Part shown: one piece after another, positions 8,011-37,255 of the stretch
How positions within the stretch are numbered: position 1 is the first letter of the stretch
How the letters are laid out: every line of letters begins with the position of its first letter
Origin: Gottfriedia acidiceleris
GTDB lineage: Bacteria; Bacillota; Bacilli; Bacillales; Bacillaceae_G
Length of the DNA stretch: 38,682 nucleotides
Direction of reading: 5' to 3'
NCBI RefSeq assembly: GCF_002128425.1
Contig: NZ_NESS01000022.1
Coordinates: forward strand, 1-38,682
Notes under the pieces: model-generated
Seen by the model: the letters and a program-made list of their open reading frames with translations, nothing else
Database searches by the model: none
What the model was told of the DNA's origin: nothing
Translations under genes and position numbers: made by a program

Positions 8011-8236
8011 TTAATTGCTATCTGGGTCAGTATCATCATGGTAAGTTGAACCTTCTGTCTGTGCATTAAATTTCCAATTGACAAGTAGCTTATCACCTTG
8101 GAATTCGTTTTGGTTTTCTCCATTATCAATAAACTCAAATAATACAAAGATTTTTTCTTTATCCCCATGGACAATGCCGTCCGGTTTATTATAACCAATG
8201 CCAGTATCTATTGCAGTAATATCTGGTTGTTGGTTT
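8011..8236 (-). pseudogene. C-terminal remnant of a TasA/camelysin (CalY) family gene
   Basis: On the minus strand an open frame without a start runs from about 8236 to the TAA at 8011-8013. It encodes about 74 residues, including KEKIFVLFEFIDNGENQN and EFQGDKLLVNWKFNAQ. This is the pattern at the C-terminus of TasA/camelysin proteins, the SipW-processed fibre or surface proteins of Bacillus. The signal peptide and first half are missing: the frame meets the M4 protease relic at about 8236. It is therefore a truncated pseudogene left by a rearrangement. The assignment is from remembered family sequence, not from an alignment. Confidence 0.7.
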
Positions 8237-8995
8237 TGAAGGCGTTAAGTAAGGAAGACGTTGTAAAAGCATATCTTAATTCAAAAGTAGTAGATCTTAT
8301 GAAATCGGGATCTGCATGGGAACAATTTAAGATTGTAAGCGAACAAGCTGACAACGAAACTAATACTTATCATGTAAGAACAGTTGAACAGTATAAAGGA
8401 ATCCCAATCTATGGATCATGACAAACTGTTGCTCTAGACGCAAATAACAATGTATTTGCATCATTTGGTAATGTCACACAAAAGTTAGCTCGTTCAATGA
8501 TTCCAACAGAAGCAACTATTTCCGAAGAAGATGCTGTTGTAATTGCTAAAGAGGATTGAAGCAGAAATTGGTAAAGTAAATAATTATGACAAAATCGATA
8601 CGCAAATAACAATTTATCCATATAAAGGGAAGTATTACTTAGCGTATTTAGTTAAGGCTTCTACTTTTGTTCCAGCACCGGGATACTTCCTTTATTTTGT
8701 AGATGCTACAAGTGGAGAAATTATTAATAACTTTGATGCTATTAATAATTTAGCAGATCCAGCGTCGCTATCACCAGTAATGGCAAAAGGGCTGGATGCA
8801 TATGGAAAAAATGCAAACTTTCCCTGTTGGTAAAGACCTTAAAACAGGTACAAGCTATTTAGCATCTTCTGGATTTAAAGAAATGTGCGAAGCCGCTATT
8901 CAACCTTCACGTAACTTGTATCCAGATAAAAATGGCGTACCATCAGCTCAAACAAAGGCTATAATGGACGCATACACATCCGTAGGAGTAAATTA
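8237..8995 (+). pseudogene. Relic of an M4 neutral protease (bacillolysin type)
   Basis: The relic begins abruptly with LSKEDVVKAYL, the fungalysin/thermolysin propeptide (FTP) domain, and reads VRTVEQYKGIPIYGS before a TGA at about 8419. Coding resumes in the same frame (QTVALDANNNVFASFGNV) and continues to IAKED, where a one-base change near 8555 shifts frame into EAEIGKVNNYDK and a PepSY-like part (YFLYFVDATSGEIINNF). Near 8825 a second shift leads to FKEMCEAAIQPSRNLYP and ends DAYTSVGVN, like the last helices of M4 proteases. No HEXXH zinc motif is present: the catalytic domain has been deleted. The signal peptide is missing too. At least one stop, two shifts and a large internal deletion show it is dead. 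Confidence 0.85.
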
Positions 8996-9019
8996 AATAA
9001 TTTAATATTTACTAAAAGA

Positions 9020-16236: not shown

Positions 16237-16258
16237 AGAACTAGTGTTCTTTAGAACA
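16237..16258. promoter_or_regulatory. Operator-like palindrome cluster upstream of the MFS gene
   Basis: AGAAC-TAGT-GTTCT-TT-AGAACA holds three alternating half-sites that make two overlapping palindromes (AGAAC with GTTCT, and TGTTCT with AGAACA). It lies 58-79 bases upstream of the MFS start, an appropriate place for a repressor. Confidence 0.55.
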
Positions 16259-16660
16259 TATATTCTTATTTTAACATTAAATTCCTTTAATAATCAATCC
16301 CAATTATTCAATCTAATAGATTTCACAGAAACAATATATCTAACTCATTACAATTGACTATTAATTGTTACAATTATATTATTACCCATTTTAAGAAAAA
16401 ACTATCAACTACCATCCTACCTATCTCTTTTTTCAACACTCTTATAATTTTATAAATTTATTTCACCTTTAGCTTTTATCTCCTAGACTTACTTTATCTT
16501 TCACACTTATTTCGACCAATTAATAAACAATTTAAAAATTAATTTAAACAAGGAATTATTTACTTATTCAGCATTATTTTGATAGATTTGTGAACGCTTT
16601 TTATAAAGGTTTAAATCTTAATAGTACTGACCACTTATATTATTAAACTTATTACTAATA
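16259..16660. other. AT-rich non-coding stretch
   Basis: About 400 bases with no gene on either strand. It separates the MFS gene from the divergent SigO-like cluster and must contain the promoter of that cluster. No clear sigma-A promoter was recognised. Confidence 0.6.
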
Positions 16661-16678: not shown

Positions 16679-17247
16679 ATGGATAACAATAGAAAAAAAG
16701 TATTTCAGTATTTGGAGGGTATAGAGGTAAAAAAAGATTCATAGTTGAAAAATTCCTCGAAGAACTAAATAACTTTCTTTTATTCGAATCATATCTAGAA
16801 CATCCTAATATAGAAAAACAAAGAATTATAGACTCTTCTTTTAAAAAGTTTTTATTTGAATTTAGAAAGAGAAGTTATTTTAAAAGTCTAATGCGATACA
16901 AATCCATTGATTTCGATAAGCGTATAAATAAATTTAATAACAGGAATATTTTATCAATAGACAAACCTGTAAAACTGGATGTAATAAGTTTGACGAAAAA
17001 CAAAATTATCATTAATGAACATCCAAATATCTATAGTGGGTCAGATTCTTTTGAACAATTAGAGAATGAAGTCTTAAGAAATGCAATAAAGACATTAACA
17101 CCAAAGCAGCAACAAATTATTAAATTAATATATTTTCAACATTTAACACAAACTGAAACTGCTAGTATGACAAACTCTTCTCCCCAAAATATCAATAAAA
17201 TACATAAAAAAGCTATTGAACATATTAAATCTAAATTTAATTTATAA
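16679..17247 (+). CDS. SigO-like sigma factor (region 4), needs a -1 frameshift
   Basis: AAAGGAGG precedes the ATG at 16679, but its frame stops after 21 codons (TAG at 16742). The -1 frame is open from 16693 to 17247 and encodes the body: EKFLEELNNFLLFESYLE, then YKSIDFDKRINK, then a sigma-70 region 4 helix-turn-helix (about the last 57 residues, AIKTLTPKQQQIIKLIYF and NINKIHKKAIEHIK). The joined product is about 189 residues, near the size of SigO (YvrI) of B. subtilis, which it resembles as remembered. Like SigO it lacks region 2, which the next gene supplies. Two in-phase A AAA AAA G heptamers lie where the frames overlap. Programmed frameshift, transcript slippage or an inactivating deletion are all possible. 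The regulon is unknown. Confidence 0.7.
16714..16736 (+). other. Candidate -1 frameshift signal (dnaX-like)
   Basis: An internal GGAGGG (16714-16719) lies nine bases before A AAA AAA G (16729-16736), which is in the phase expected for -1 slippage in the frame of the ATG at 16679. An SD-like element about ten bases before a slippery A-tract is the layout known for dnaX. A first in-phase heptamer lies at 16693-16699. No strong downstream hairpin is seen. Confidence 0.45.
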
Positions 17248-17267
17248 ATGTTTGGAGTTGTACTTCT

Positions 17268-17492
17268 ATGCCCAGTGATGAGGATTTTCAAACTTTATTA
17301 GACGATCTCAAATTTTATATTAATAGTCATGTTAGAAAAGTAACTCCTGTAAATCAAGAAGATCTAGCACAAGAAATCAAAATATTAATGTACGAGAAAT
17401 TTTTAAATATCAATGATATTATCTCTGAACCACCAGGTTTCTTTGAATTTATAGAGCAAAAATCTAAGAATGTAAAACAATATAAAGGATAA
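17268..17492 (+). CDS. RsoA-like co-sigma factor (sigma-70 region 2 only)
   Basis: A 74-residue protein with the sigma-70 region 2 signature NQEDLAQEIKILMYEKF (about 29-45), where D-L-x-Q-E is the core-RNA-polymerase contact motif. It has no region 4. In B. subtilis the pair SigO (region 4) and RsoA (79 residues, region 2) together form one working sigma factor. Size, content and position, 20 bases after the SigO-like gene, all fit RsoA. GGAG lies ten bases before the ATG. This gene is intact, unlike its neighbours. RsoA would bind core polymerase and let the SigO-like partner recognise the -35 element. Confidence 0.75.
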   Translation: MPSDEDFQTLLDDLKFYINSHVRKVTPVNQEDLAQEIKILMYEKFLNINDIISEPPGFFEFIEQKSKNVKQYKG

Positions 17493-17496
17493 TAAG

Positions 17497-17605
17497 ATGT
17501 CTGAAATATACCAGATATAAACAATTATGGATTTCCAATAGCTGAATCTAATTTCTATCACAAAATATAGAACAATTAAAGGAAATAAAAAACAACAAAA
17601 ACTAA
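17497..17605 (+). pseudogene. Broken YvrJ-like fragment
   Basis: ATG at 17497 opens MSEIYQI then stops. Sequence in the next frames reads DINNYGFPIAESNFYHKI and then IEQLKEIKNNKN before TAA at 17603. Joined with two shifts this gives about 34 residues resembling the short YvrJ family (a GFP-x-x motif, then a K/E-rich helix). yvrJ lies next to sigO/rsoA in B. subtilis, which supports the reading. Both breaks fall at TATA runs and would be repaired by removing one TA each. Evidence is modest because the fragment is short. Confidence 0.45.
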
Positions 17606-17618
17606 GGAGTTAAATAAA

Positions 17619-18034
17619 ATGAAAAATATAAGGCCTTCTGAGTTTAAACTTTATTCAAAAAGTTTAAACCAGTATATTTTAGTTATAACGATATTCAAAA
17701 CTTATATCACGTTTATATAAAACAACCTTACAATTCTAGAGATATAGTAGAAGATATTGAATATTTTGGGGAAGAAAGAATTTTACAGATATTATCTCAA
17801 ACACTCGGAGCAAAACTTAACTTTACAATGTTTCAAGAAATAAAGTTATTTAATATAGAGGGTATAACATCAATTTTTTACCATACCCTAAAAGAAATGA
17901 ATATATATGAGATTTTAAATTTGTTAAAGAAAAAAGGAAAATTAAAATATGTTTTGTACGTTTATACTATTGATTTAAAAAATAGTAATAAGACTGAATT
18001 TGAACAAACCATTCAAATAGCATACATCTGGTAA
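17619..18034 (+). CDS. Unknown protein in the SigO-like cluster, needs a -1 frameshift
   Basis: AAGGAG nine bases upstream supports the ATG at 17619 (MKNIRPSEFKLYSKSL), but this frame stops at a TAA after 34 codons. The -1 frame is open from about 17647 to the TAA at 18032 and gives PVYFSYNDIQNLYHVYIKQP, then IEYFGEERILQILSQTLGAK and a lysine-rich end. The two are joined in phase by T TTA AAC at 17661-17667, a classical -1 slippery heptamer. The joined product is about 138 residues, with no signal peptide or membrane segment, so it does not look like the membrane anti-sigma factor YvrL. I do not recognise it. It may be programmed, or a gene with a one-base loss. Confidence 0.5.
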
Positions 18035-18109: not shown

Positions 18110-18358
18110 CTAATTTAAAACATACTCAATTATATCTACAACGTCATTATGCGTATTTCCTGCTATTGCACAGATAGCTGCTGCAAAAAATACTCCTATT
18201 ATCGTTACTACCGTACCTGCACCACCAAGACTTATAGCAGCTACAATATCTTTATAGCCTCCCGAATTTTTTCGAATAAATTCATCATTTAATTGTTTGT
18301 ATGTCTTATCAACATGACTTAAGTTTTCAACAAAAAAAGTTTCTCCAGGAACTGGCAT
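18110..18358 (-). CDS. Bacteriocin-like or small membrane peptide
   Basis: An 82-residue protein not matched to a named family. A charged N-terminal part (1-36, MPVPGETFFVENLSH and following) precedes a Gly/Ala-rich hydrophobic segment, IVAAISLGGAGTVVTIIGVF then FAAAICAIAG (about 38-67), and a short acidic end (NDVVDIIEYVLN). This leader-plus-hydrophobic-core look is that of some unmodified bacteriocin or toxin-like peptides, but there is no clear GG cleavage site and no immunity or export gene nearby. AAGGAGAG is a strong ribosome binding site. It lies between the SigO-like cluster and eno. A holin-like or plain membrane role is equally possible. Confidence 0.65.
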   Translation of the reverse strand: MPVPGETFFVENLSHVDKTYKQLNDEFIRKNSGGYKDIVAAISLGGAGTVVTIIGVFFAAAICAIAGNTHNDVVDIIEYVLN

Positions 18359-18412: not shown

Positions 18413-18493
18413 TGTGTTTGTATATATAAGTGAAAGTTTCAAAGAATTTTTTAACTTATGTGCAAAAAAACTAAAATGTTTTAGATTTCAAAA

Positions 18494-18577: not shown

Positions 18578-19933
<1,356 letters not shown>

Positions 19934-33041: not shown

Positions 33042-34397
33042 TTACATAGCAGCACTTTGATTATTTGCCGCTTCTCTAATTTTTTTAGCTTCCATTCGTC
33101 TTTGTAGTGCAACGAATGGTAAATAGACAACTACTGAGACAATTAAGTTAAATGTTGCTAAGGCTGCACCTGTCCAATGTCCCCCTGTAATCAACCACCC
33201 ACCTAAAATTGGTGGTGTTACCCATGGAATATTCGTAGTTACTGGGTGGACCATGCCTAAAGAAATCGCTAAATATGAAATAACTGTTAAGATAATTGGT
33301 GTACCAATGAAGGGAATTAACCACATTGGATTTAATACGATCGGTAATCCGAAAAGCACTGGTTCATTAATTTGGAATAATCCTGGTGCCCCACCTAATG
33401 CAATCATTTGTTTATTACGTTTTCGATTAATTAATATCATAGAAATGATTAACCCTAACGTAGCACCTGATCCACCTAAGAATACAAATGCATCAAAGAA
33501 CTGGCCAGCCATTACATTGTATTCACTCCACTTTGTAACCCCTTTTGCTGCTAAATCAATATTTTCATTTCCTAAAGCTGTAAATAATGGTGTTGTAATT
33601 CCACCAAGAATGTTTGGTCCATGTAAGCCAAGTACCCAGAAGAAATGAATAAAGAATGCAATACCGATTGCAAACGGTAAAGAGTCTGCAGCATTCGTTA
33701 ATGGCTTAACAAGCACTGAACTTAACCAATCATTAAAATATACTCCATCCGATAAATATAATCTGAATAACAATCCAACAATTGCGATCACAAAGATTGT
33801 CAGCATACCAGGTAATAACTTCGCAAATGCTTTTGAAACAGCTGGTGGTACACCATCCGGTAATTTAATAACTAATTGCTTTACTCTTGATAATCGAACA
33901 AAAATTTCTGTTGCGATAATTGCTACAATTATTCCAGTAAAAAGTGCAGTTGAATTAGTGTAAGTAGAATTCACTAGTCCCCAAACACTACCAGTAGCTG
34001 TTTTTCCATTTTCTAATGTAACCGTTACAGTATTTAATGATTGTGGCACTAGTACAAAATATGATGCTAATGCGACAAGCATTGCTTCAAATCCTTCATC
34101 ACCATAAGAACGAGCCAGTTTATAAGCAATTCCTACAACTGCAAAAACAGTCATAAATGCAAATGTTCCCCACCAAATATCTCCACCTAGCGTCTTCCAG
34201 TTCACTCCAAAAAGAGCTTCCATCATTTTGTCGTAACCTTTAATCGCTCCACCTAAATTATTAAATAAAACTGCAAATGAACCGACCATTGTAATGGCAA
34301 TCATACCGATTAACGCATCGCGTATTGCTAATAAATGACGTTGGTTACCGAACTTTGCTGCAGCTGGCATTATATATCTATCTACAAAATTCATCAT
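33042..34397 (-). CDS. PTS cellobiose/lichenan-type IIC permease, copy 1
   Basis: The 451-residue membrane channel of the lactose/cellobiose PTS, with about ten hydrophobic segments. Family marks are the N-terminal PAAAKFGNQRHLLAIRDAL, HFFWVLGLHGPNI in mid-protein, and the sugar-binding loop QINEPVLFGLPIVLNP. GGGAG lies before a double ATG. It sits between IIB and IIA. The protein is very similar to the permease at 35527-36882, which implies tandem duplication; differences cluster in loops and at the C-terminus. Confidence 0.96.
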   Translation of the reverse strand: MMNFVDRYIMPAAAKFGNQRHLLAIRDALIGMIAITMVGSFAVLFNNLGGAIKGYDKMMEALFGVNWKTLGGDIWWGTFAFMTVFAVVGIAYKLARSYGDEGFEAMLVALASYFVLVPQSLNTVTVTLENGKTATGSVWGLVNSTYTNSTALFTGIIVAIIATEIFVRLSRVKQLVIKLPDGVPPAVSKAFAKLLPGMLTIFVIAIVGLLFRLYLSDGVYFNDWLSSVLVKPLTNAADSLPFAIGIAFFIHFFWVLGLHGPNILGGITTPLFTALGNENIDLAAKGVTKWSEYNVMAGQFFDAFVFLGGSGATLGLIISMILINRKRNKQMIALGGAPGLFQINEPVLFGLPIVLNPMWLIPFIGTPIILTVISYLAISLGMVHPVTTNIPWVTPPILGGWLITGGHWTGAALATFNLIVSVVVYLPFVALQRRMEAKKIREAANNQSAAM

Positions 34398-34439
34398 TTT
34401 TAAGACTCCCTTTTGTTAAAATTTATGCACAGATCCAGT

Positions 34440-34742
34440 CTATTTTTTTAAACTAAGTGCTAATTCTAAAACAGCTTCACCATTCATAAGTCCATAATGT
34501 ACCGGATTGATTACATCAACAGGTATCCCTTTTGGCTCGGCAACTTTTTTCATTTCAGAAGCTAAATAACGTACTTGTGGTCCTAATAAAAGAACATCTG
34601 CTTTATCTAAATTTTCTTTTGCAGCATCACCTGAAACTGCCCAAATCTTTACGTCAATTCCTTTTGCTTTTGCTGCATCCTCCATTTTAGTTACTAGTAA
34701 ACTAGTAGACATTCCTGCTGAACAAGCTAATAAAATATTCAT
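34440..34742 (-). CDS. PTS cellobiose/lichenan-type IIB component, copy 1
   Basis: The 100-residue IIB protein, which phosphorylates the sugar during transport. The phosphocysteine is Cys7 in the N-terminal [32 protein letters not shown] and [15 protein letters not shown] are typical of the CelA/LicB type. GGAGG precedes the ATG. It is the first gene of its operon; a sigma-54-type promoter ends 106 bases upstream. Confidence 0.96.
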
Positions 34743-35526: not shown

Positions 35527-36882
35527 TTATACATTTAATGAATTACTACTTGTAGTTTCTGTGGACTTCCTTGCTTCCATTCTTTCTGCTACTACAACGA
35601 ACGGTAAGTAAATAACGATTGAGATCACAACATTAACAAGCGCTAAGACTGCACCGCTCCAGTGACCACCTGTTGCTAAATATCCACCAATAACCGGTGG
35701 AGTTACCCATGGAATTGTAGAAACAATAGGGAAAACAATATGTGATTTAACAGCTAAATAAGAAGTAATGGTTAAAACAATTGGAGTACAAATAAATGGT
35801 ATTAACCAAACTGGGTTTAACACTATTGGTAAACCAAAAATAATTGGTTCATTAATATTAAATAATCCTGGTGGTGTTCCTAATGCAATCATCTGTTTAT
35901 GACGTTTACGATTTACAAAGAACATTGCAATAAGTAAACCGATCGTAGTTCCTGAACCCCCCATAAATACGAATGCATCTAAGAATGGACCTGCTAATAC
36001 TGAGTACTTATCTAAATCTGTCACACCTTTTGCATATAAATCGATGTTATGGTTACCTAAACTTGTTAATAAAGGCGTTGTAATACCACCTAAAATATTT
36101 GGACCATGTAATCCAAGCGCCCAGAAGAAATGTATAAAGAATGCAATTGCAACTGCAAATCCTAAAGAGTCAGCAGCATCAGTTAACGGTTTTACAAGAA
36201 CTGAATTTAACCAATCATTAAAGAATACGCCATCTGAAATGTATAATCTGAACAATAAGCCAATTAATGCAACGATAAAAATTGTTAACATACCTGGTAA
36301 TAACTTTGCAAATGCTTTTGATACGGCTGGTGGAACGCCATCTGGTAATTTAATAACTAATTGTTTCACTCTAGCTAATCGTACAAAGATTTCAGTTGCA
36401 ATAATCGCAACGATAATTCCTGTAAATAAAGCCGTAGAGTTTAATGAATTCCAGCTAATAAATCCCCAAGTTCCCCCTGTAGCTGTCTTACCACCATTTA
36501 AAGTAACGGATACTGCAGCTAATGATTGTGGAACAAGTACAAAGTAACATGCTAAAGCAACAAGCATCGCTTCAAAACCTTCATCACCATATGAACGCGC
36601 TAATCTATGCGCAATCCCTACTACGGCAAATACTGTCATAAATGCAAATGTTCCCCACCAAATATCACTGCCTAGTGTTTTCCAGTTTGCACCAAAGACT
36701 GTTTCCATCATTTTATCGTAGCCATGAATTGCGCCACCCAAGTTATTAATAAGTACAGCAAAAGCCCCAATCATCGTAATGGCAATCATACCAATTAAAG
36801 CATCACGGATTGCTAACAAGTGACGTTGATTACCAAATTTCGCTGCAGCAGGCATTATATACTTTTCAGCAAAATGCATCAT
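35527..36882 (-). CDS. PTS cellobiose/lichenan-type IIC permease, copy 2
   Basis: A 451-residue permease, the same length as copy 1 and nearly collinear with it. It keeps PAAAKFGNQRHLLAIRDALI, HFFWALGLHGPNILGG and the sugar-site loop NINEPIIFGLPIVLNP. Substitutions relative to copy 1 in and near that loop (for example VLFG to IIFG) and around the periplasmic segment after VPQSL could change specificity. AAGGTG-type site before a double ATG. Confidence 0.95.
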   Translation of the reverse strand: MMHFAEKYIMPAAAKFGNQRHLLAIRDALIGMIAITMIGAFAVLINNLGGAIHGYDKMMETVFGANWKTLGSDIWWGTFAFMTVFAVVGIAHRLARSYGDEGFEAMLVALACYFVLVPQSLAAVSVTLNGGKTATGGTWGFISWNSLNSTALFTGIIVAIIATEIFVRLARVKQLVIKLPDGVPPAVSKAFAKLLPGMLTIFIVALIGLLFRLYISDGVFFNDWLNSVLVKPLTDAADSLGFAVAIAFFIHFFWALGLHGPNILGGITTPLLTSLGNHNIDLYAKGVTDLDKYSVLAGPFLDAFVFMGGSGTTIGLLIAMFFVNRKRHKQMIALGTPPGLFNINEPIIFGLPIVLNPVWLIPFICTPIVLTITSYLAVKSHIVFPIVSTIPWVTPPVIGGYLATGGHWSGAVLALVNVVISIVIYLPFVVVAERMEARKSTETTSSNSLNV

Positions 36883-36924
36883 TCTAATACACCTTCTTTT
36901 CTCTCTAGAATTTTAATTCCCCGT

Positions 36925-37227
36925 TTATTTTTTCAAATTTAAGGCCATTTCCAAAACAGCTTCACCATTCATCAATCCATAATGCACTGGATTAATAGTA
37001 TCTACTGGTATCCCTTTAGGTTCAGCCAGCTTCCTCATTTCTGAGGCTAGATAACGAACCTGTGGTCCAAGTAGTAATACATCAGCTTTGGCTAAGTTTT
37101 CTTTCGCCTCATCACCAGCAACAGCCCATATAGTTGCTTGAATTCCTTTTGCCTTAGCTGCTTGTTCCATTTTTGTAACTAGTAGACTAGTTGACATCCC
37201 TGCAGAACATACCAATAAGATATTCAT
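36925..37227 (-). CDS. PTS cellobiose/lichenan-type IIB component, copy 2
   Basis: A 100-residue IIB protein with phosphocysteine Cys7 ([16 protein letters not shown]). The ATG at 37227 is chosen because GAGGAGG lies seven bases upstream; an in-frame start five codons earlier would include the site. Nearly identical in its second half to copy 1. First gene of its operon, behind a sigma-54-type promoter. Confidence 0.95.
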
Positions 37228-37255
37228 TCTACACCTCCTCAATTTTCCTCGTCGT

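What the first reader, a model, noticed from the sequence alone, without database searches (positions are those of the whole stretch)
16679..18034. SigO/RsoA-like split sigma factor locus with several reading-frame breaks
A region-4-only sigma protein is followed by an intact region-2-only protein, then a YvrJ-like fragment and an unknown gene. This is the gene content of the unusual two-subunit SigO-RsoA system of B. subtilis. Three of the four genes need frame changes, yet their bodies stay open and the RsoA-like gene is intact. Either the system uses -1 frameshifting or it is decaying.
Basis: partly seen in the sequence, partly recalled or inferred. Interest (0 to 1): 0.78.

Follow-up and report, generated by a model that had tools for sequence, protein, structure and literature searches.

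The report
Decaying split sigma factor gene cluster
This stretch holds a worn-out copy of a rare two-piece gene switch (a sigma factor split into two proteins) that is intact in a sister species, and comparing its relatives suggests that many of these split switches are turned on by DNA damage.

Summary
In detail: a region-4-only sigma gene, an intact RsoA-like gene, YvrJ remnants and an unknown gene lie at 16679-18034, and three of the four change frame. The family call holds as "SigO/RsoA-like": Sigma70_r4 is over its cut-off, the RsoA and YvrJ models hit far below theirs. In a sister species (Bacillus sp. FJAT-25509) sigma (188 aa), RsoA-like (71 aa) and unknown gene (138 aa) are each one open frame. 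YvrJ is broken in both, and the window lacks 593 bp present in the sister, which fuses two convergent genes. Best explanation: recent decay. A -1 ribosomal rescue of sigma is not excluded. A SigO-type promoter pattern has two exact matches in the genome, both here (before sigma and before the convergent gene); the sister shows the same two. By-product: SigO-like genes of other Bacillales carry an exact LexA (SOS) core box just upstream in 20 of 31 loci, and in 32 of 39 loci fetched afterwards as a check (background 1 in 107 kb and 1 in 177 kb). The nine B. subtilis-group loci examined and the window's lineage lack it. That family-wide SOS link is the more interesting result.

The parts
16609..16640 (+). 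candidate SigO-type promoter of the sigma operon (GTTNA-N18-CACTTATAT)
   Evidence: one of two exact matches in the whole genome; same site in the sister
16679..16744 (+). start of the sigma gene, first frame
   Evidence: ATG after a ribosome-binding site; matches the start of the sister's 188-aa sigma, 21 codons, 81%
16693..17247 (+). sigma body, -1 frame, region 4 only; homology changes frame at the adenine run 16729-16735
   Evidence: Sigma70_r4 1.6e-10; 85% identical to the sister over 165 codons; frames compared
17268..17492 (+). RsoA-like (region-2-like) gene, intact, 74 aa
17497..17602 (+). YvrJ remnant in three frames
   Evidence: broken in the sister too
17619..18034 (+). gene of unknown family; starts in one frame, body 17648-18034 in the -1 frame
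   Evidence: body 83% identical to the sister's intact 138-aa gene; no relative outside the two species in 397 genomes
18110..18358 (-). convergent small-protein gene, fused to the end of the next gene by loss of sequence at 18158/18159
   Evidence: 593 bp of the sister absent; sister has 133-aa and 120-aa genes there
18424..18455 (-). candidate SigO-type promoter of the convergent gene
   Evidence: second of two exact genome matches; same site in the sister

Best explanation
The locus is a recently decayed SigO/RsoA-like split sigma factor module. Shown by sequence: sigma, RsoA-like and the unknown gene are intact in the sister; in the window the sigma and unknown genes change frame, YvrJ is broken in both species, and 593 bp are missing from the convergent genes. 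Inferred: in the intact form the region-4 protein and the region-2-like protein together act as one sigma factor, as SigO and RsoA do in B. subtilis, and read two promoters in this locus: that of their own operon (positive feedback) and that of a convergent gene for a small hydrophobic protein, possibly bacteriocin-like. In the window little or no full-length sigma would be made, leaving the intact RsoA-like gene without a partner.
For: Three genes intact in the sister. YvrJ broken in both. A 593-bp loss fuses two genes. The eight flanking genes compared align at full length in both species without a frame break. Exactly two exact SigO-type promoter matches in each genome, at the same two places, resembling sites in nine B. 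subtilis-group sigO loci. A sigma gene precedes the RsoA-like gene in 31 of 31 and 39 of 40 other loci. The module is present in 2 of 13 genomes of the genus, so it is dispensable there.
Against: dN/dS is low in all pieces of the operon (0.14-0.25), so loss must be recent or the genes still work. All register changes are of the -1 sense and slippery-type heptamers are present. No reads were available, so single breaks may be sequence errors. The promoter motif is a consensus match; at one mismatch it is no commoner than its control in the own genome (17 against 17). YvrJ occurs in 3 of 13 genus members that lack the RsoA-like gene.
Confidence: 0.78

Rival explanations
1. The sigma gene (and perhaps the unknown gene) is still made by -1 ribosomal slippage: ribosomes slip on an adenine heptamer around codon 18 of the sigma gene and go on in the body frame, so that slippage sets the amount of sigma.
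For: In-register heptamers AAAAAAA at 16693 and 16729 in the sigma overlap and TTTAAAC at 17663 in the unknown gene; GGAGGG at 16714-16719, before the second heptamer; all register changes are -1. Low dN/dS in the bodies.
Against: The sister reads the same genes without any shift. No heptamer in the 8-codon YvrJ start frame, and YvrJ is broken in both species. About 0.2 and 0.3 heptamers are expected by chance in the two overlaps (84 in 8,935 codons of 21 flanking genes). The loss at 18158/18159 cannot be explained this way.
Confidence: 0.1
2. The breaks are sequencing or assembly errors, many of them at homopolymer runs, and the genes are intact in the cell.
For: The sigma break falls in an adenine run; the assembly is a 45-contig draft.
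Against: Breaks cluster in 1.4 kb, while eight flanking genes compare at full length; the YvrJ breaks are shared in kind with another species; a 593-bp difference is not a base error.
Confidence: 0.07
3. A shortened sigma of 118 aa, started inside the gene at 16891, still works with the intact RsoA-like protein.
For: The 118-aa frame holds all of Sigma70_r4, and the RsoA-like gene is intact and conserved.
Against: It lacks about 70 N-terminal residues that align in the three intact relatives compared; no ribosome-binding site is evident before 16891 (by eye).
Confidence: 0.05

Closest known systems
SigO-RsoA (YvrI-YvrHa) of Bacillus subtilis
   Same: Region-4 protein and region-2-like protein from adjacent genes, YvrJ nearby, SigO-type promoter before the sigma gene (function from passages of PMC8103513 and PMC10028694).
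   Different: RsoA-like protein scores 22.5 bits (window) and 29.3 (sister) against a cut-off of 100; the oxdC-type genes of the own genome lie elsewhere; the second promoter here serves a different, convergent gene; window copy broken.
SigN (ZpdN) of B. subtilis plasmid pBS32
   Same: Self-activated sigma with a small local regulon; LexA-repressed, like many relatives of the window's pair (PMC6751061, passages).
   Different: One chain, not split; the window's own copy has no LexA box next to the sigma gene.
Plasmid-borne SigO/RsoA/YvrJ modules (pBS72, Priestia plasmids, Parageobacillus plasmid)
   Same: Sigma gene followed closely by a small region-2-like gene, YvrJ close by.
   Different: Stand among cargo such as glutaredoxin, S8 peptidase, ABC transporter or amidase genes, which the window locus lacks.

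Membership tests
SigO-RsoA split sigma factor | Sigma protein with region 4 and no recognisable region 2 | tested here: met
   Sigma70_r4 over cut-off, no region-2 Pfam hit, in the window body and in the sister's full protein
SigO-RsoA split sigma factor | Adjacent small region-2-like protein | tested here: met
   Intact 74-aa gene 21 bp downstream; matches the profile shared by relatives
SigO-RsoA split sigma factor | RsoA over the NCBIfam NF041489 equivalog cut-off (100 bits) | tested here: not met
   22.5 bits in the window, 29.3 in the sister; 9 of 397 genomes of the order pass, all of one genus, g46
SigO-RsoA split sigma factor | YvrJ gene next to the pair | tested here: not met
   Only remnants, 14.4 bits against 29.5; no PF12841 match in the own genome or the sister's
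SigO-RsoA split sigma factor | SigO-type promoter before the sigma gene | tested here: met
   16609-16640, by pattern only
SigO-RsoA split sigma factor | Target oxdC-yvrL beside the locus | tested here: not met
   Two oxdC-type genes in the own genome, on other contigs (C5, C41); none over cut-off in the sister
SigO-RsoA split sigma factor | The two proteins act only together to start transcription | not testable with these tools
   needs a reporter experiment
LexA (SOS) controlled sigma locus | Exact LexA core box GAACN4GTTC close upstream of the sigma gene | tested here: not met
   None in the sister within 400 bp; the window's only exact box (16238-16249) is about 430 bp upstream of sigma and next to the MFS gene. 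Met in 20 of 31 and 32 of 39 relatives

The most novel reading that the evidence does not exclude
Split SigO/RsoA-type sigma factors are, across Bacillales, DNA-damage switches: LexA represses the sigma gene, and after damage the two-part sigma amplifies itself through its own promoter and turns on local cargo (YvrJ and secretion, lysis or bacteriocin-like genes, sometimes on plasmids). The studied B. subtilis version and this window's lineage lack the LexA box next to the sigma gene and keep the self-activated promoter.
Probability: 0.7. Interest if true: 0.7.

Novelty: new member of a known kind. Interest (0 to 1): 0.45.

Why it matters
The window copy is a decaying member of a known kind. 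Its relatives matter more. For the two-part sigma of B. subtilis, one paper names acid stress and cell-wall antibiotics as signals (PMC10141391, passage). A LexA box next to most of the other SigO-like genes examined, yet absent from the nine B. subtilis-group loci examined, gives a direct, cheap test of what these switches are for. The sister species offers an intact copy with only two exact predicted promoters, a small system in which to test regulon and product.

Tried and rejected
Rejected: frameshifting as the main explanation (against it). Not supported: a phage origin of this copy; no match to the window's RsoA-like protein or to pBS72's SigO-like protein in 50,697 phage records and one relative in viral contigs, though PHROG families of unknown function match both proteins, so phage relatives exist. 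Not supported: a wide regulon; at one mismatch the promoter pattern gives 17 matches against 17 for the reversed control in the own genome and 27 against 20 in the sister. Led nowhere: structure prediction of the sister's unknown gene and convergent protein (mean pLDDT 37 and 48), so no fold search was made; the exact pattern in 16 other genomes (4 matches in 3 genomes, none at the sigma loci); the PDB sequence search (3 general sigma factors); family scans of the convergent proteins (only hits far below cut-off), so "bacteriocin-like" is a guess; paper searches for FJAT-25509 and for a LexA-SigO link. Recalled only and not confirmed: that megacin A-216, an SOS-induced bacteriocin of B. megaterium, may use a similar pair (one search listed no paper with megacin in title or abstract; none was opened); that the window's genus may be Gottfriedia.

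Full report
What is there. Between an MFS transporter gene (minus strand, start 16179) and the enolase gene (minus strand, 18578-19873) the window holds, on the plus strand, a region-4-only sigma gene, an RsoA-like gene, YvrJ remnants and a gene of unknown family, and on the minus strand a small convergent gene, 18110-18358. The sigma body hits Sigma70_r4 (1.6e-10) and no region-2 family. The RsoA-like gene is a clean 74-aa frame; it hits NF010682 and NF041489 (RsoA) far below their cut-offs. The YvrJ remnant is seen only in pieces.

Sister species. Of 13 genomes of the genus (own included), 2 have the RsoA-like gene: the window's and G006. The contig of G006 has the same length (379,254) as NZ_LJIZ01000013.1 of Bacillus sp. 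FJAT-25509, found as L012. There sigma (188 aa), RsoA-like (71 aa) and unknown gene (138 aa) are each one open frame. YvrJ is broken there too. The window lacks 593 bp that the sister has at 18158/18159; this joins the start of one convergent gene to the end of the next. Piece by piece, dN/dS between the species is 0.20 (sigma body, 165 codons), 0.18 (sigma start, 21 codons), 0.14 (RsoA-like, 70), 0.25 (unknown gene body, 128) and 0.48 (remaining part of the convergent gene, 66), against 0.04-0.16 for eight flanking genes. So the operon was under selection until recently, and the window copy is in decay.

Frameshifting. All register changes in the window are of the -1 sense, and in-register slippery-type heptamers stand in the sigma overlap (two) and in the unknown gene's overlap (one), none in the 8-codon YvrJ start frame. 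At the rate in 21 flanking genes (84 in 8,935 codons) about 0.2 and 0.3 would be expected in the two overlaps. GGAGGG at 16714-16719 lies upstream of the second sigma heptamer; I recall that such a site stimulates -1 shifting in dnaX. Because the sister needs no shift, this stays a minor rival (0.1).

How widespread. A 4-row profile of the RsoA-like protein (A2) matches 136 of 397 sampled genomes of the order, in 52 of 135 genera, at E 0.001; some of the weakest matches lie in frames of 185-613 aa and may be other sigma factors. The RsoA equivalog cut-off is passed in 9 of 397 genomes, all of genus g46, which I take to be B. subtilis and its close kin (the naming is inference, resting on the named B. 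subtilis control, which also passes). A SigO-like gene lies on the same strand next to the RsoA-like gene in 31 of 31 first loci (one, L038, in two pieces) and in 39 of 40 later ones; a YvrJ frame lies within the fetched stretch in 22 of the 31 and in 34 of those 39. Within the genus, YvrJ occurs in 3 of 13 genomes, none of which has the RsoA-like gene, so YvrJ is not bound to the pair. Relatives of the sister's sigma lie on 24 of 72,556 plasmid records. The unknown gene has no relative outside the two species in 397 genomes.

Promoters. Upstream of the window's sigma gene and, on the other strand, upstream of the convergent gene stands the pattern GTTNA-N18-CACTTATAT. In the 4.77-Mb genome it has two exact matches, both here; in the sister also two, at the same two places. 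With one mismatch allowed the counts (17 and 27) are close to those of the reversed control (17 and 20), so no wider regulon is claimed. In the 9 g46 loci examined, similar sites stand before sigO in 9 (AGTTTAC...CATTTAAT or CCACTTAAT), facing the divergent yvrJ in 3 (GGTTTAC...TTTCACTTATATA) and beyond yvrJ in 5 (AGTTGAC...CACTTAAC). [quoted passage not shown] That the sites are these promoters is inference. The own genome has two oxdC-type genes over the cut-off, on other contigs, and the sister none, so oxalate is probably not the output here.

SOS boxes. Comparing upstream regions I saw an exact LexA core box, GAACN4GTTC (recalled as the B. subtilis DinR/LexA core), close to the sigma start in most relatives. 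Counted from 400 bp before to 90 bp after the start of the open frame: 20 of 31 loci, against 1 box in 106,650 bp of the rest of these loci. The 9 g46 loci and the sister (L012) lack it; L008 has a one-mismatch site; so 20 of the 22 loci outside g46 carry it. I then fetched 40 further loci, chosen by rank and not by upstream sequence: 32 of 39 carry the box, at least one locus in 13 of 18 genera, against 1 in 176,759 bp of flank. One locus (L095) had no sigma gene on the same strand and was dropped. Stretches of the same length inside or downstream of the sigma gene have 0 in both sets. Loci of one genus are not independent, so the genus count is the safer one. The window's only exact box is at 16238-16249, next to the MFS gene; the sister has one at the matching place. 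Full-text searches for a LexA-SigO link showed none in their listings; most subscription papers are not held and the long lists were seen only in part, so this is weak evidence of novelty. The nearest known design is SigN of pBS32, one chain, LexA-repressed and self-activated (PMC6751061, passages).

Papers. Passages only were read of PMC10028694, PMC8103513, PMC10141391, PMC5052260 and PMC6751061. PMC10028694 and PMC8103513 give SigO as the region-4 part and RsoA as the region-2 part; the table in PMC10141391 lists the regions the other way round. The original SigO-RsoA papers were seen only as references in these; two tried were not held.

Verdict. The window locus is a decaying SigO/RsoA-like split sigma module (confidence 0.78), a new but broken member of a known kind. 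The family-wide LexA box is a by-product that deserves its own test.

Noticed in passing
upstream of the SigO-like gene in the loci (L008-L046, L089-L128): Exact LexA core box GAACN4GTTC close to the sigma start in 20 of 31 and 32 of 39 loci, against 1 in 106,650 and 1 in 176,759 bp of the remaining sequence; absent from the nine B. subtilis-group (g46) loci.
   Followed up: yes
16238-16249: The window's only exact LexA core box, 59 bp upstream of the MFS transporter gene (start 16179, minus strand); the sister has one at the matching place, L012:6854.
   Followed up: partly
L038, L035, L137: Other split sigma loci are broken too: sigma in two pieces in L038 and on a B. subtilis plasmid (L137), RsoA in two overlapping pieces in G127 (locus L035).
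   Followed up: partly
8167-8996: Three neighbouring frames on the plus strand (8167-8421, 8543-8833, 8796-8996) look like pieces of one broken gene, by eye a secreted metalloprotease; not searched.
   Followed up: no
G000:C5:11103-12203 and G000:C41:132166-133260: Two oxalate-decarboxylase-type (bicupin) genes over the family cut-off in the own genome, away from this locus.
   Followed up: no
PHROG families phrog_35151 and phrog_37242: Two PHROG families of unknown function match the RsoA-like protein (9.1e-12 for the sister's) and nearly the whole of the sister's sigma (1e-7), so phages probably carry such pairs.
   Followed up: no
33042-34742 and 35527-37242: Two similar sets of sugar PTS component genes stand close together on the minus strand (frame list; not searched).
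   Followed up: no
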